Assembly (NCBI RefSeq): GCF_039691755.1
Contig: NZ_CP137552.1
Location: 1,178,001-1,242,000, forward strand
DNA from: Halomonas sp. Bachu 37
GTDB taxonomy: Bacteria > Pseudomonadota > Gammaproteobacteria > Pseudomonadales > Halomonadaceae
DNA: 64,000 nucleotides
Direction: 5' to 3'
The translations under genes and the position numbers were made by a program. The notes beneath the pieces are model-generated. The model did not search any database. It worked only from the letters and a program-made list of their open reading frames with translations, and had not been told where the DNA came from. The stretch's first letter is position 1. Every line of letters begins with the position of its first letter. Shown piece after piece: positions 41,514-46,069 of the stretch.

Positions 41514-42143
41514 TTACCCGTGTCGGGCAGCCAGTACCCGTTCCACCGTTTCCACGATTGCCTGGGTCTGGGGATCGACTTCGATATTGACGTAATCGCC
41601 AGGGCCCCTTGTGCCCAAGGTAGTGCGCGCCAGGGTCTCAGGAATCAGATTGACACAGAACCGGGCATGCTCACTATCGTTCGCGGCCGTTACCGCGCCG
41701 ACCGTAAGGCTGATACCATCCACGCCGATATAGCCTTTCTCGAAGACGAAACGCCCCATTTCGGCAGGCAAGCCAAACCACAGGCGCCGATTGTTGGGGG
41801 CTTCTTCCAACTCCACCAGCTCCACCATCCCCAGCACATGACCCGACATGGCGTGACCACCAATTTCATCGCCGAAACGCGCAGCTCGCTCTATATTGAC
41901 GCAATCACCAACGTCTAATGCACCAAGATTGGTCAATTGCAGCGTCTCGCGCATCAAATCGAAGCTGATACGATTGTCGTCGATGTGCGTCACCGTCAGG
42001 CATACCCCGTTATGAGCGACCGAGGCTCCCAGGGCCAGGCCCGTACACAGATCGTTAGGCATTTTCACGACATGGGTGCGAAACGCCTCCAACTGGCGAA
42101 TCTCCACTACCTCCGCCACACCTTGCACGATACCGGTAAACAT
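41514..42143 (-). CDS. ribE: Riboflavin synthase alpha chain
   Basis: Dismutates two 6,7-dimethyl-8-ribityllumazine molecules to riboflavin. 209 residues with two tandem lumazine-binding domains (about 1-95 and 96-190). The start MFTGIVQGVAEV and the motifs GASVAHNGVCLTV and VDGISLTVGAV are typical. A GGAG site precedes the ATG. No FMN riboswitch is visible upstream, which is normal for a stand-alone ribE. Confidence 0.95.
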   Translation of the reverse strand: MFTGIVQGVAEVVEIRQLEAFRTHVVKMPNDLCTGLALGASVAHNGVCLTVTHIDDNRISFDLMRETLQLTNLGALDVGDCVNIERAARFGDEIGGHAMSGHVLGMVELVELEEAPNNRRLWFGLPAEMGRFVFEKGYIGVDGISLTVGAVTAANDSEHARFCVNLIPETLARTTLGTRGPGDYVNIEVDPQTQAIVETVERVLAARHG

Positions 42144-42415: not shown

Positions 42416-42444
42416 TTGACAATCTTCAAGGTACTACCTAGACT
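42416..42444 (+). promoter_or_regulatory. Strong sigma-70 promoter of the metNIQ leader
   Basis: TTGACA (perfect -35) and TAGACT (-10, four of six) with an ideal 17-base spacer. The expected start is near 42451, at the foot of the riboswitch stem. The 270 bases between the ribE start and this promoter hold no other structure I can name. Confidence 0.75.
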
Positions 42445-42450
42445 TTCGCC

Positions 42451-42531
42451 GCAATTATTACGACGCCGATTTGAACCCAGATTGCGGGCGTCCGCTGGAA
42501 GCTTCCAGTGAAGTGCAGCTAAAAGGGTGTG
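42451..42531 (+). ncRNA. SAM-II-class riboswitch aptamer in the metN leader
   Basis: The RNA has the SAM-II layout. A 6-base P1 stem (GACGCC 42462-42467 with GGCGUC 42487-42492) encloses a loop with GAUUUGAACCC and AUUGC, closely matching GAUUUAACC and AUUGC of the known aptamer. Downstream GCAGCUAAAAGGG (42515-42527) matches GUAGCUAAAAAGGG, whose GGG forms the pseudoknot with the loop CCC (42476-42478). Between P1 and this segment lies an extra hairpin (CUGGAAGCUUCCAG, 42495-42508) not found in the minimal SAM-II structure. SAM binding is known to hold the 3' segment. It sits between promoter and terminator, upstream of methionine transport genes, as expected for SAM control. Assigned by eye from memory of the aptamer. 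Confidence 0.82.
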
Positions 42532-42543
42532 TCCAGCGTTGAT

Positions 42544-42570
42544 GGCCACCCGCCAGGGTGGCCTTTTTTT
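42544..42570 (+). terminator. Intrinsic terminator of the SAM-II leader (attenuator)
   Basis: Perfect 8-base stem (GGCCACCC / GGGTGGCC), 4-base loop and seven T residues, 62 bases before metN. The left arm's CACCC can also pair with GGGTG at 42525-42529, which lies in the riboswitch 3' segment. That gives a plausible antiterminator: SAM locks GGGTG in the aptamer and the terminator forms; without SAM, GGGTG captures CACCC and metN is transcribed. Confidence 0.85.
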
Positions 42571-42632: not shown

Positions 42633-43676
42633 ATGATTCAATTGGAAAACATCACCAAGACCTACGGAACCGGCGATGCCGCCGTCCAGGCCTTGCAAAA
42701 CGTCGATCTGCATATTCCTGCCGGCCAGGTCCATGGCGTGATAGGCCTATCGGGGGCAGGCAAGTCCACCTTGATCCGCTGCGTCAATCTCCTGGAGCGC
42801 CCCAGTTCCGGCCGAGTCATTGTGGACGGTCAGGAGATGACCCGTTTGAGCGCCCCGCAGCTCAACAAGGCCCGCCATCGTATTGGCATGATATTTCAAC
42901 ACTTCAATCTACTCACCACCCGTACGGTATATGACAACGTCGCCCTCCCCCTGGAGTTGATGGGCACCAAGCGTCAGGCCATTCGACAGCGTGTCCTGCC
43001 GCTGCTTGAATTGGTCGGATTACAGGACAAGGCAAGCCAGTACCCCGCCCAGCTTTCCGGTGGCCAGAAGCAGCGGGTGGCGATTGCCAGGGCGCTGGCG
43101 AGTGAGCCCCGCGTGCTGCTATGCGATGAAGCGACTTCGGCCTTGGACCCGCAAACCACCGGCTCCATCCTGGAGCTGTTGCGGGATATCAACCAGAAGC
43201 TCAACCTCACCATTCTACTCATTACCCATGAGATGGAAGTGGTAAAATCGATTTGTCACCGGGTCAGTTTGATCTCAGACGGCCAGCTGGTCGAGGAAGC
43301 CGAAGTCGGCGAGTTCTTCACTGCGCCACGCACCCAACTGGGGCGAGAATTTCTCAATGACTTTTTGCAACTGGAACCGCCCGCGGCGCTCATGGAGCGC
43401 CTGCTTCCATCCGCCACGGAGGATAGCCATCCCGTGGTACGCCTGACATTTTCCGGCGATGCGGTTTCCACGCCCTTGATCTCTCGCCTGGCACGCGACT
43501 GTGGTGTCGATGTCAGCATTCTTCAGGCCAAGGTAGAATCGATCCAGGATCGCACCCTGGGATTGATGATCGCCGAGCTGCTCGGCAGCAGCGAACAGAC
43601 ACGTCAAGCCATGCAATATCTTGAATCCCATCAACTACACGTAGAGGTCCTTGGGCATGTCCAGCGCGATGATTGA
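42633..43676 (+). CDS. metN: D-/L-methionine ABC transporter ATP-binding protein
   Basis: ATPase of the MetNIQ methionine importer, 347 residues. Walker A is GLSGAGKST (residues 39-47), the signature is LSGGQKQR, and Walker B is LLCDEATSALD. The C-terminal part (about 265-347) is the ACT-like C2 domain (VRLTFSGDAVSTPLISRLAR, VEVLGHVQ) that binds methionine and shuts down transport in E. coli MetN. The ATG at 42633 has an AAGG site; the longer frame from 42558 overlaps the terminator. It overlaps metI by 20 bases. Confidence 0.96.
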   Translation: MIQLENITKTYGTGDAAVQALQNVDLHIPAGQVHGVIGLSGAGKSTLIRCVNLLERPSSGRVIVDGQEMTRLSAPQLNKARHRIGMIFQHFNLLTTRTVYDNVALPLELMGTKRQAIRQRVLPLLELVGLQDKASQYPAQLSGGQKQRVAIARALASEPRVLLCDEATSALDPQTTGSILELLRDINQKLNLTILLITHEMEVVKSICHRVSLISDGQLVEEAEVGEFFTAPRTQLGREFLNDFLQLEPPAALMERLLPSATEDSHPVVRLTFSGDAVSTPLISRLARDCGVDVSILQAKVESIQDRTLGLMIAELLGSSEQTRQAMQYLESHQLHVEVLGHVQRDD

Positions 43677-44310: not shown

Positions 44311-44403
44311 CGTCGCCTTTAATAACTAAAATGAATTAGACAGACGATTCTTATTCCCGCAATATCATTCAGGTTGCTTCACTACATAGAGGAGACTGCT
44401 GAA

Positions 44404-45201
44404 ATGCATAAGCTACTACTGGGCGGCCTTACCGCCATTGCACTTGCCGTCAATACTGCCGCTGCCGAAACGCGTACCATCAAGATGGGCACCGTCGCCG
44501 GCCCCGAAACTGAAGTCATGCAGGTTGCGGCTCGCATTGCCCAGGAAGAGTACGACCTGAACGTCGAGATCATCGAGTTCACCGACTACGTCACACCCAA
44601 CGCCGCACTGGCTGATGGCAGCCTGGATGCCAACGCCTATCAGCACGAGCCCTACATGCAATCCATGGTCAATGACCGTGGCTACGACTTCGCCATTGCC
44701 GGCTACACCTTCGTCTATCCGATCGGTGCGTATTCCGAAAAGCACTCTTCCATCGACGAGCTGCCCGACGGTGCTCAGATCGCGCTGCCCAACGACCCTT
44801 CCAACGAAGGTCGCGCGCTGATTCTGATGCATAACGAAGGCCTGATCACCCTCGAAGATCCGACAAACCTTGAAGCCACGCCGATCGATATTGCCGAAAA
44901 CCCGCGCAATTTCCGCTTCCGCGAGATTGAAGCCGCTCAGCTGCCGCGTGTGCTCCCGGATGTCGACATGGCCTTCATCAACAACACCTTCGCCCAGCCG
45001 GCCGGCTTGCACCTCGATGATGCCTTGATCAAGGAAGGCCCCGAGTCTCCCTACGTCAATCTGATCGCGGTGCGCGGCGGTGACGAAACACGCGAAGATA
45101 TTCGTCAGCTGGTGGATGCCTACCAGCGTGAAGAAGTCATCGAAAAAGCGGAAGAGCTGTTCAAGGGCGGTGCGGTGCCGGGTTGGACTGAAGCCGAGTA
45201 A
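44404..45201 (+). CDS. metQ: Methionine-binding protein of the MetNIQ transporter
   Basis: Periplasmic binding protein of the NlpA family, 265 residues. A signal peptide ends at about residue 21 (VNTAAA). There is no lipobox cysteine, so it is probably soluble rather than lipid-anchored, unlike E. coli MetQ. Features: KMGTVAGPETEVMQVAARIA, EFTDYVTPNAALADGSLDANAYQH and the ligand region FINNTFAQPAGL. The ATG at 44404 follows a GGAGACTGCTGAA site. A terminator at 45231 ends the operon. Confidence 0.95.
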   Translation: MHKLLLGGLTAIALAVNTAAAETRTIKMGTVAGPETEVMQVAARIAQEEYDLNVEIIEFTDYVTPNAALADGSLDANAYQHEPYMQSMVNDRGYDFAIAGYTFVYPIGAYSEKHSSIDELPDGAQIALPNDPSNEGRALILMHNEGLITLEDPTNLEATPIDIAENPRNFRFREIEAAQLPRVLPDVDMAFINNTFAQPAGLHLDDALIKEGPESPYVNLIAVRGGDETREDIRQLVDAYQREEVIEKAEELFKGGAVPGWTEAE

Positions 45202-45878: not shown

Positions 45879-45955
45879 TGGTAGGACCAGGCGGATTTGA
45901 ACCGCCGACCTCCACGATGTCAACGTGGCGCTCTAACCAACTGAGCTATGGTCCT
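45879..45955 (-). tRNA. tRNA-Val(GAC), copy 1
   Basis: 77 bases with encoded CCA. Read on the minus strand, it has a seven-base acceptor stem (AGGACCA/TGGTCCT), a D-arm with AGTTGGTTA, an anticodon stem CCACG/CGTGG with loop TTGACAT (anticodon GAC), and the T-arm GGCGGTTCAAATCCGCC. Valine codons GTC and GTT. Identical to the copy at 45993-46069, with 37 bases between. Confidence 0.95.
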
Positions 45956-45992
45956 GTTGTTCGGGCTGCGGCGTGTCGTTGATAAAACGATC

Positions 45993-46069
45993 TGGTAGGA
46001 CCAGGCGGATTTGAACCGCCGACCTCCACGATGTCAACGTGGCGCTCTAACCAACTGAGCTATGGTCCT
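45993..46069 (-). tRNA. tRNA-Val(GAC), copy 2
   Basis: Identical in all 77 bases to the neighbouring copy, with encoded CCA and anticodon GAC. It is the promoter-proximal one of the pair. Both are read from the promoter at 46091-46118 and end at the hairpin near 45843. Confidence 0.95.

What the first reader, a model, noticed from the sequence alone, without database searches (positions are those of the whole stretch)
42416..42570. SAM-II-type riboswitch with its own promoter, an extra hairpin and an attenuator in front of metNIQ
TTGACA-17-TAGACT starts a transcript at about 42451. The first 77 bases match the SAM-II aptamer in the P1 stem, the GAUUU-AACC and AUUGC loop parts, and GCAGCUAAAAGGG. 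The GGG-CCC pseudoknot can form. A CUGGAAGCUUCCAG hairpin (42495-42508) is inserted where the minimal aptamer has none. A TCCAGCG downstream (42532-42538) can pair with CGCUGGA (42493-42499), giving alternative folds. GGGTG (42525-42529) can pair with the terminator's CACCC. SAM-II is best known from Alphaproteobacteria and often acts on translation; a transcription-attenuating version on a methionine importer in a gammaproteobacterium would be an unusual arrangement.
Basis: partly seen in the sequence, partly recalled or inferred. Interest (0 to 1): 0.82.

Follow-up and report, generated by a model that had tools for sequence, protein, structure and literature searches.

The report
SAM-II riboswitch with inserted hairpin
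A short RNA switch in front of a methionine importer in a salt-loving bacterium looks like a known S-adenosylmethionine sensor (SAM-II) that has gained an extra hairpin, and the hairpin hides it from the standard RNA-family search.

Summary
A promoter, a pseudoknot aptamer (42462-42529), a hairpin (42493-42510) and a terminator (42544-42570) precede metNIQ. The leader is in 37 of 37 genomes of the genus drawn and, by covariance model, in 111 of 151 family genomes.

It is best read as SAM-II with a stem-loop inserted 3' of P1. Rfam's SAM-II model gives the window only 10.4 bits (cut-off 36). Three lines link it to SAM-II. A model without any Halomonadaceae picks the two halves of this element as the best two of 13 hits in the 64-kb window. 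A model from Halomonadaceae alone finds 143 places in 369 genomes, of which 101 are also found by Rfam's SAM-II model. Hairpin-less metN leaders of the same family reach 47.8, 38.9 and 36.9 bits with Rfam's model.

Likely mechanism, inferred: SAM locks GGG of GGGUG into the pseudoknot, so GGGUG cannot form the antiterminator with CACCC and transcription stops before metN. Binding and termination are untested. SAM-II in Gammaproteobacteria and its use of terminators were known; the hairpin form, missed by Rfam's model here and in six other families, is the new part.

The parts
42416..42444 (+). Sigma-70-type promoter: TTGACA 42416-42421, 17 bp, TAGACT 42439-42444; start of transcription expected near 42451-42453 (inferred)
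   Evidence: Sequence; TTGACA in 37 of 37 genus leaders, TA-initial hexamer at 17 bp in 36 of 37
42462..42467 (+). P1, 5' strand GACGCC, pairs with 42487-42492
   Evidence: Pairs 100% in 82 aptamers, one pair changed on both sides in 29 of them
42468..42472 (+). GAUUU, expected third strand of the SAM-binding triplex
   Evidence: Invariant in 37 genus members; ATTT invariant and the G nearly so in 44 canonical/minimal SAM-II; role taken from the SAM-V/SAM-II structures (PMC6061858)
42476..42478 (+). CCC, loop strand of the pseudoknot part P2a, pairs with GGG 42525-42527
   Evidence: Standard pairs in 99.6% of cells, almost no variation, so no covariation support
42481..42485 (+). AUUGC, pairs with GCUAA (P2b) and forms part of the pocket
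   Evidence: UUGC invariant; the A varies (A or C)
42487..42492 (+). P1, 3' strand GGCGUC
42493..42510 (+). Inserted stem-loop, in the position of SAM-V's P3 (7 bp, loop AGCU)
   Evidence: Two-sided changes in 7 of 7 pairs, 86.4% of cells paired; absent from metN leaders L292, L293, L296, L302 of the same family; insert folds better than 99.5% of mononucleotide shuffles
42511..42514 (+). AAGU linker; its counterpart AAGT/AAAT is kept in hairpin-less forms and follows P3 in SAM-V as stacked adenines
   Evidence: PMC6061858 passages
42518..42523 (+). GCUAAA, 3' strand of P2b and expected SAM contacts
   Evidence: GCTAA invariant in 37 genus members; GCTAAA invariant in 44 canonical/minimal SAM-II
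42525..42529 (+). GGGUG switch strand: GGG pairs with CCC 42476-42478 (aptamer) or GGGUG with CACCC 42547-42551 (antiterminator)
   Evidence: Antiterminator in the nascent minimum-energy fold of 106 of 119 leaders; window folds
42544..42570 (+). Intrinsic terminator GGCCACCC-GCCA-GGGUGGCC-U7
   Evidence: -18.8 kcal/mol alone; a terminator by my rule in 113 of 119 distinct leaders
42633..43676 (+). metN, methionine ABC transporter ATPase with NIL domain
   Evidence: TIGR02314 best family at 486 bits (cut-off 499.7, just missed); NIL domain PF09383
43651..44310 (+). metI, permease (ORF as listed)
   Evidence: NF008049 256.7 bits, cut-off 212
44374..45201 (+). metQ, substrate-binding lipoprotein (ORF as listed)
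   Evidence: TIGR00363 270.8 bits, cut-off 228.85; NF008285 284.3 bits, under its cut-off of 374

Best explanation
The leader is a SAM-II riboswitch into which a stem-loop has been inserted between the 3' strand of P1 and the 3' strand of the pseudoknot, the place where SAM-V carries its P3. Transcription starts near 42451-42453. When SAM is plentiful it binds the triplex made of GAUUU, AUUGC and GCUAAA, which locks CCC (42476-42478) to GGG (42525-42527). GGGUG is then not free to pair with CACCC (42547-42551), the terminator 42544-42570 forms and RNA polymerase stops before metN. When SAM is scarce, GGGUG pairs with CACCC as an antiterminator and metNIQ is transcribed, so that methionine is imported. 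Shown here by computation: homology to SAM-II, the hairpin (covariation, and hairpin-less leaders in the same family), conserved promoter and terminator, methionine-gene context. Inferred: SAM binding, the direction of control, and the hairpin's role (probably folding rate or stacking on P1 rather than ligand choice).
For: R2, a model from 14 canonical (RF00521-found) and 30 hairpin-less class members without any Halomonadaceae, returns 13 hits up to E 10 in the unfiltered 64-kb window; the best two are the two halves of this element in order on one strand (28.0 bits E 1.3e-5; 11.7 bits E 0.2), the third has 7.8 bits. The element is the top R2 hit in 28 of 28 further Halomonadaceae loci. R1, from Halomonadaceae alone, finds 143 places in 132 of 369 class genomes; RF00521 finds 133 at E<=0.001; 101 are shared. 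Hairpin-less metN leaders of the family pass RF00521: L293 47.8, L294 38.9, L292 36.9 bits. The hairpin covaries in 7 of 7 pairs. R1 hits elsewhere precede metK, metA, metN and metZ in the proteins checked. Terminator in 113 of 119 and antiterminator in 106 of 119 leaders. Experimental precedent: the S. meliloti metZ SAM-II leader gives a terminated RNA whose level rises under high SAM (PMC9373788, passages).
Against: RF00521 never reaches its cut-off in the hairpin-bearing Halomonadaceae leaders tested. The second R2 half alone is not significant (E 0.2). The 30 class members in R2 were found through R1, so R2 is not fully independent of Halomonadaceae; only its 14 RF00521-found rows are. Pseudoknot pairs are nearly invariant and so unproven by covariation; the number of pairs with two-sided change (8) is not above shuffles (mean 7.2). 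The finished terminator (-18.8) outweighs the antiterminator (-10.6), so control must be kinetic. Six of 119 leaders lack a terminator by my rule, 5 of 119 lack the GGGNG..CACCC-type motif, and no terminator is visible after L294, L295, L297 and L298. No ligand assay.
Confidence: 0.85

Rival explanations
1. The fold is SAM-II-derived but the RNA has shifted to another ligand, for example SAH or a methionine-related compound.
For: Riboswitch variants with other ligands exist: rare SAM-I variants bind spermidine (PMC10853860, passages). The A of AUUGC varies to C in some members.
Against: The expected contact bases (GAUUU, UUGC, GCUAA) are invariant in 37 genus members and shared with canonical SAM-II; the spermidine variants changed their contact bases and are SAM-I, not SAM-II; the gene is a methionine importer in 137 of 138 leaders.
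Confidence: 0.06
2. It deserves a class of its own, as SAM-V was separated from SAM-II, rather than being SAM-II with an insert.
For: The standard SAM-II model does not find it; like SAM-V it has a stem-loop 3' of P1; SAM-V was separated partly because search models sort the two apart (PMC2704228, passages).
Against: Hairpin-less leaders of the same gene in the same family are SAM-II by Rfam's cut-off and keep the same platform in L292 and L293; everything but the insert aligns with SAM-II.
Confidence: 0.05
3. A constitutive attenuator or source of a short terminated RNA; the aptamer-like part no longer controls metN.
For: The terminator is stronger than the antiterminator; terminated SAM-II leaders accumulate as small RNAs in S. 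meliloti (PMC9373788, passages).
Against: Pocket, pseudoknot strands and antiterminator are all kept across the family, which a dead attenuator would not need.
Confidence: 0.03
4. Ordinary leader-peptide attenuation.
For: A terminator with a competing stem; Rfam does not call the leader.
Against: The only mini-ORF that I saw (GTG AAG TGC AGC TAA, 42508-42522) has no methionine codon after its start and loses its start codon in several relatives; SAM-II homology.
Confidence: 0.01

Closest known systems
SAM-II riboswitch (SAM_alpha, RF00521)
   Same: P1, pseudoknot, GAUUU / UUGC / GCUAAA core, promoter just upstream of P1, terminator downstream, methionine genes (Corbino 2005, PMC1273637, passages).
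   Different: A covarying stem-loop 3' of P1; below the Rfam cut-off; GGGUG:CACCC antiterminator. The 62 RF00521 places listed are at most 81 bases long over a 79-position model, so none shows such an insert (a model biased against inserts).
SAM-V riboswitch
   Same: Pseudoknot core that superimposes on SAM-II, plus a P3 stem-loop directly 3' of P1 followed by stacked adenines (PMC6061858, passages).
   Different: SAM-V is translational, with the Shine-Dalgarno by P2a; the window has a terminator. No SAM-V match at E<=10.
metXZ RNA element of beta-proteobacteria (Leyn 2014, PMC4239095)
   Same: Described as a pseudoknot followed by a terminator, with a possible antiterminator, before methionine genes (section 10 read).
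   Different: Reported as new and apart from SAM_alpha, on metX/metZ. The text read gives no sequence, so whether it is SAM-II was not tested.
preQ1-II riboswitch (recalled, no call)
   Same: A pseudoknot aptamer with an extra stem-loop embedded in it.
   Different: Other ligand and other sequence.

Membership tests
SAM-II (RF00521) | Score over Rfam's gathering cut-off (36 bits) | tested here: not met
   10.4 bits at the window; no match at gathering. Hairpin-less metN leaders in the family do meet it: 47.8, 38.9, 36.9 bits
SAM-II (RF00521) | Conserved core: GAUUU, UUGC, GCUAAA in order around P1 | tested here: met
SAM-II (RF00521) | P1 stem enclosing the loop | tested here: met
   100% of cells paired, one pair with two-sided change in 29 of 82
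SAM-II (RF00521) | Pseudoknot P2 including the 3' part P2a | tested here: inconclusive
   99.6-100% of cells can pair but there is almost no variation
SAM-II (RF00521) | Minimal architecture of one stem plus pseudoknot, no further stem | tested here: not met
   Covarying inserted stem-loop. It is absent in hairpin-less leaders of the family, so it is an insert rather than a different fold
SAM-II (RF00521) | Binds SAM and discriminates against SAH | not testable with these tools
   Needs probing or calorimetry
SAM-V | Stem-loop P3 directly 3' of P1 | tested here: met
   Hairpin 42493-42510, same position
SAM-V | Match to the Rfam SAM-V model | tested here: not met
   No SAM-V row at E<=10
SAM-V | Translational control with the Shine-Dalgarno next to P2a | tested here: not met
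   GGG lies about 105 bases before the metN start with a terminator between

The most novel reading that the evidence does not exclude
SAM-V-like P3 stem-loops have been gained or lost repeatedly on the SAM-II scaffold, so that SAM-II and SAM-V form one family with removable modules. A hairpin-bearing branch, fixed at metNIQ in most Halomonadaceae genera and present in at least six other families, has stayed out of sight because the reference model cannot bridge the insert; P3 tunes folding speed for a kinetic terminator.
Probability: 0.35. Interest if true: 0.62.

Novelty: new variant of a known kind. Interest (0 to 1): 0.5.

Why it matters
It exposes a specific blind spot: hairpin-bearing SAM-II RNAs fall below the reference model although hairpin-less leaders of the same gene in the same family pass it. 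It supplies a candidate SAM sensor for metNIQ across much of Halomonadaceae, a family of industrial use (recalled). The hairpin-bearing and hairpin-less leaders with the same expression platform are natural controls for asking what a P3 stem does to a pseudoknot riboswitch, and they bear on whether SAM-II and SAM-V are really separate classes.

Tried and rejected
Direct Rfam calling of the window: only two tRNAs at gathering, no SAM_alpha row, 10.4 bits. RF00521 with E up to 10 in 58 relatives matched in 58 of 58 genomes and 13 of 14 controls, none over cut-off: noise. Plasmid DNA search: two records with a 25-base chance match. Of the 119 stretches of the genome contigs pattern scan, 17 (for example Shewanella L067, Marinosulfonomonas L112) are chance matches on inspection. 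R1 hit L174 lies in coding sequence and was dropped. Three of 14 long R1 matches in the class (L215-L217) have no inserted stem on inspection and were not counted as hairpin-bearing. Spermidine-type ligand change: that paper concerns SAM-I variants. Complementarity of the GCTAAA strand to the terminator arm in 41 minimal elements: mean 8.2 bp against 6.5 in shuffles, but only 14 of 41 individually at or below 0.05. In one search the insert of L223 was not parsed by my pattern, so 10 of 11 outside inserts were folded, against mononucleotide shuffles.

Literature: searches listed no report that I recognised of a hairpin-bearing SAM-II or of a SAM-II leader in Halomonas. They cover the open-licence library only and I read passages of eight papers, not the full lists.

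Full report
What is there. On the + strand the window carries a promoter (TTGACA 42416-42421, 17 bp, TAGACT 42439-42444), an RNA element from 42462, a terminator ending at 42570 and metN from 42633, followed by metI and metQ. MetN has TIGR02314 as best family at 486 bits, just under the cut-off of 499.7, and the NIL domain; MetI passes its cut-off and MetQ that of the MetQ/NlpA family. On the other strand upstream lies riboflavin synthase (41514-42143).

Conservation. A DNA search of 58 relatives found the leader in 37 of 37 genomes of the window's genus, its own included (best E from 2.4e-114 to 3.5e-24); in the 21 genomes of other families the best E was 0.002. TTGACA is in 37 of 37 genus leaders and a TA-initial hexamer at 17 bp in 36 of 37. 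In 137 of 138 leaders the MetN motif GLSGAGKST follows within 700 bases; the other is cut by the end of its locus (some species are present twice, from two collections).

Structure. In 82 aptamers (82 of 104 distinct; A2) P1 pairs in every cell, with one pair changed on both sides in 29 sequences; the inserted hairpin has two-sided changes in 7 of 7 pairs with 86.4% of cells paired. Over the whole structure 182 cells show two-sided changes against 62.8 in shuffles, and the covariation score is 0.302 against 0.099 shuffled and at most 0.077 when slid; the bare number of pairs with two-sided change (8) does not exceed shuffles (7.2). The pseudoknot strands hardly vary, so covariation does not prove them. 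The pattern used for A2 fixed much of the core; the 37 genus members, found by DNA similarity, also keep GATTT, CCC, TTGC, GCTAA and the last GG without exception.

Is it SAM-II? Rfam alone says no: no SAM_alpha match at E<=10 in 1.3 kb, 10.4 bits when only 91 bases are given, the second of two families listed, and no match over the cut-off in any of 58 relatives. Three tests explain this.

First, R2 was built from 14 canonical elements found with RF00521 in other classes of the phylum (presumably Alphaproteobacteria) and 30 hairpin-less elements of the class, with no Halomonadaceae. The 30 had been found through R1, so R2 is only partly independent. Unfiltered on the 64-kb window it gave 13 hits up to E 10. 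The best two are 42464-42490 (28.0 bits, E 1.3e-5) and 42509-42530 (11.7 bits, E 0.2), in order on the same strand, with the hairpin between; the third has 7.8 bits. In 28 of 28 further Halomonadaceae loci the element is the top hit, 22.2-34.4 bits.

Second, R1, built from Halomonadaceae only, matched 143 places in 132 of 369 class genomes at E<=0.001 (GTDB's class includes beta-proteobacterial orders, recalled). RF00521 on the same number of genomes drawn the same way matched 133 places in 117, with 30 genomes over the cut-off. 101 places are shared, 42 are R1 only and 32 RF00521 only. R1 finds canonical SAM-II in 11 of 27 loci at E<=1, 8 of them at E<=0.004, best 29.1 bits; 16 are missed and two further matches lie elsewhere.

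Third, the family holds hairpin-less leaders. R1 matched 111 of 151 family genomes in 20 of 24 genera. By match length, read by eye from that list, 95 genomes have 67 bases or more, 6 have 60-64 and 10 have 53-56; three genomes carry a second, short element. I fetched 17 of these loci. L292, L293, L296 and L302 precede metN with the same platform (TGTGTCCAGCGTTGA, CACCC, GGGTGGC, T-run) but have a short linker in place of the hairpin; L294, L295, L297 and L298 precede metN without a visible terminator. Of the 60-64-base group, L300 and L303 keep the platform but show no MetN motif in the stretch fetched, L299 has it only 1.4 kb away, and L301 has lost GCTAAA. RF00521 gives L293 47.8, L294 38.9 and L292 36.9 bits (cut-off 36), and L302 29.6, L297 27.8, L296 25.4 and L298 23.3; L299, L300, L303 and the hairpin-bearing L306 and L308 give nothing at E<=1. 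So the metN leader of this family is SAM-II where the hairpin is absent, and the hairpin is what hides it.

The hairpin form is not confined to Halomonadaceae. Of 14 long R1 matches in other families of the class, 11 carry an inserted stem, in six families (L188, L194, L204, L214, L218-L224); 0 of these 11 have an RF00521 match at E<=1. Ten of the 11 inserts were folded and each lies at or below 0.035 against mononucleotide shuffles. Best protein families downstream: metZ for L194 and L221, metN for L218 and L219, a Cys/Met PLP enzyme for L188 and L224 and an ABC ATPase with NIL domain for L223. Minimal elements checked precede metK (L178), metA (L171, L182), metN (L175, L184) and metZ (L192); in 16 of 17 R1-hit loci scanned with Rfam the minimal element scores 25.9-38.9 bits with RF00521, 5 of them at or over 36, and L169 scores none.

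How it likely works. The SAM-V structure paper describes third-strand uridines, a U-U-G stretch and a U-A-A-A strand as the pocket, a P3 stem-loop 3' of P1 followed by stacked adenines, and near-identical SAM binding in SAM-II (PMC6061858, passages). The window has these elements, with the hairpin in P3's position followed by AAGU. SAM should stabilise GGG:CCC. GGGUG is also complementary to CACCC in the terminator's 5' arm. Folding the growing chain, the antiterminator forms when the 3' end is at 42552-42556, and it is in the nascent minimum-energy fold of 106 of 119 leaders. In L292 and L293 its inner part is built from different pairs. Once the 3' arm is out, the terminator (-18.8) beats the antiterminator (-10.6), so the choice must be kinetic. 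In 41 minimal elements the GCTAAA strand itself is complementary to the terminator region, 8.2 bp on average against 6.5 in shuffles, 14 of 41 individually at or below 0.05: the same logic, modest evidence. Elsewhere, the S. meliloti metZ SAM-II leader gives a terminated RNA that rises under high SAM (PMC9373788, passages).

Against, and limits. Six of 119 leaders lack a terminator by my rule (L059, L068, L092, L109, L145, L156; L092 has the hairpin but an interrupted T-run). Energy folding cannot represent the pseudoknot. One genome of the genus (G1105), and 40 of 151 in the family, gave no match. Nothing here measures SAM binding.

Known or new. [quoted passage not shown] A 2014 survey of about 200 proteobacterial genomes with Rfam profiles reports SAM_alpha only in Rhizobiales and Rhodobacterales (PMC4239095). 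All these were read as passages. The searches named in Tried and rejected listed no report of the hairpin form or of a Halomonas SAM-II; subscription papers are not covered. I rate it a new variant of a known kind.

Noticed in passing
L170:863-1079 and L173:1492-1716: A SAM-II element (32.9 and 33.5 bits, under cut-off) is followed at once by a SAM-I/IV aptamer (62.9 and 58.0 bits, over cut-off): two unrelated SAM aptamers in tandem in one gammaproteobacterial family (f9), before an AAA/MoxR-type ATPase frame.
   Followed up: partly
L191, L196, L197, L225, L227, L228, L229, L304, L305: Two SAM-II-like cores in tandem in gammaproteobacterial genomes, among them Halomonadaceae (L225, L304, L305); an AzlC-family gene lies downstream in L225 and L305.
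   Followed up: partly
L170, L173, L177, L191, L196, L204, L214, L225, L228, L304, L305: Rfam RF02424 (Burkholderia sRNA Bp2_287) matches the opposite strand of SAM-II elements at 24-38 bits (cut-off 70): that family may be a SAM-II leader read on the wrong strand.
   Followed up: no
42445-42452: The stretch between the -10 box and the expected start is G+C-rich (TTTCGCCG) and kept in many genus members, as in stringently controlled promoters (recalled); alignment.
   Followed up: no
L059, L068, L109, L156, L145: Five Halomonas leaders keep the hairpin-bearing aptamer but have a different downstream stretch without the usual terminator; they may use another expression platform.
   Followed up: no
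45879-46069: Two tRNA-Val (GAC) genes in tandem on the minus strand.
   Followed up: no
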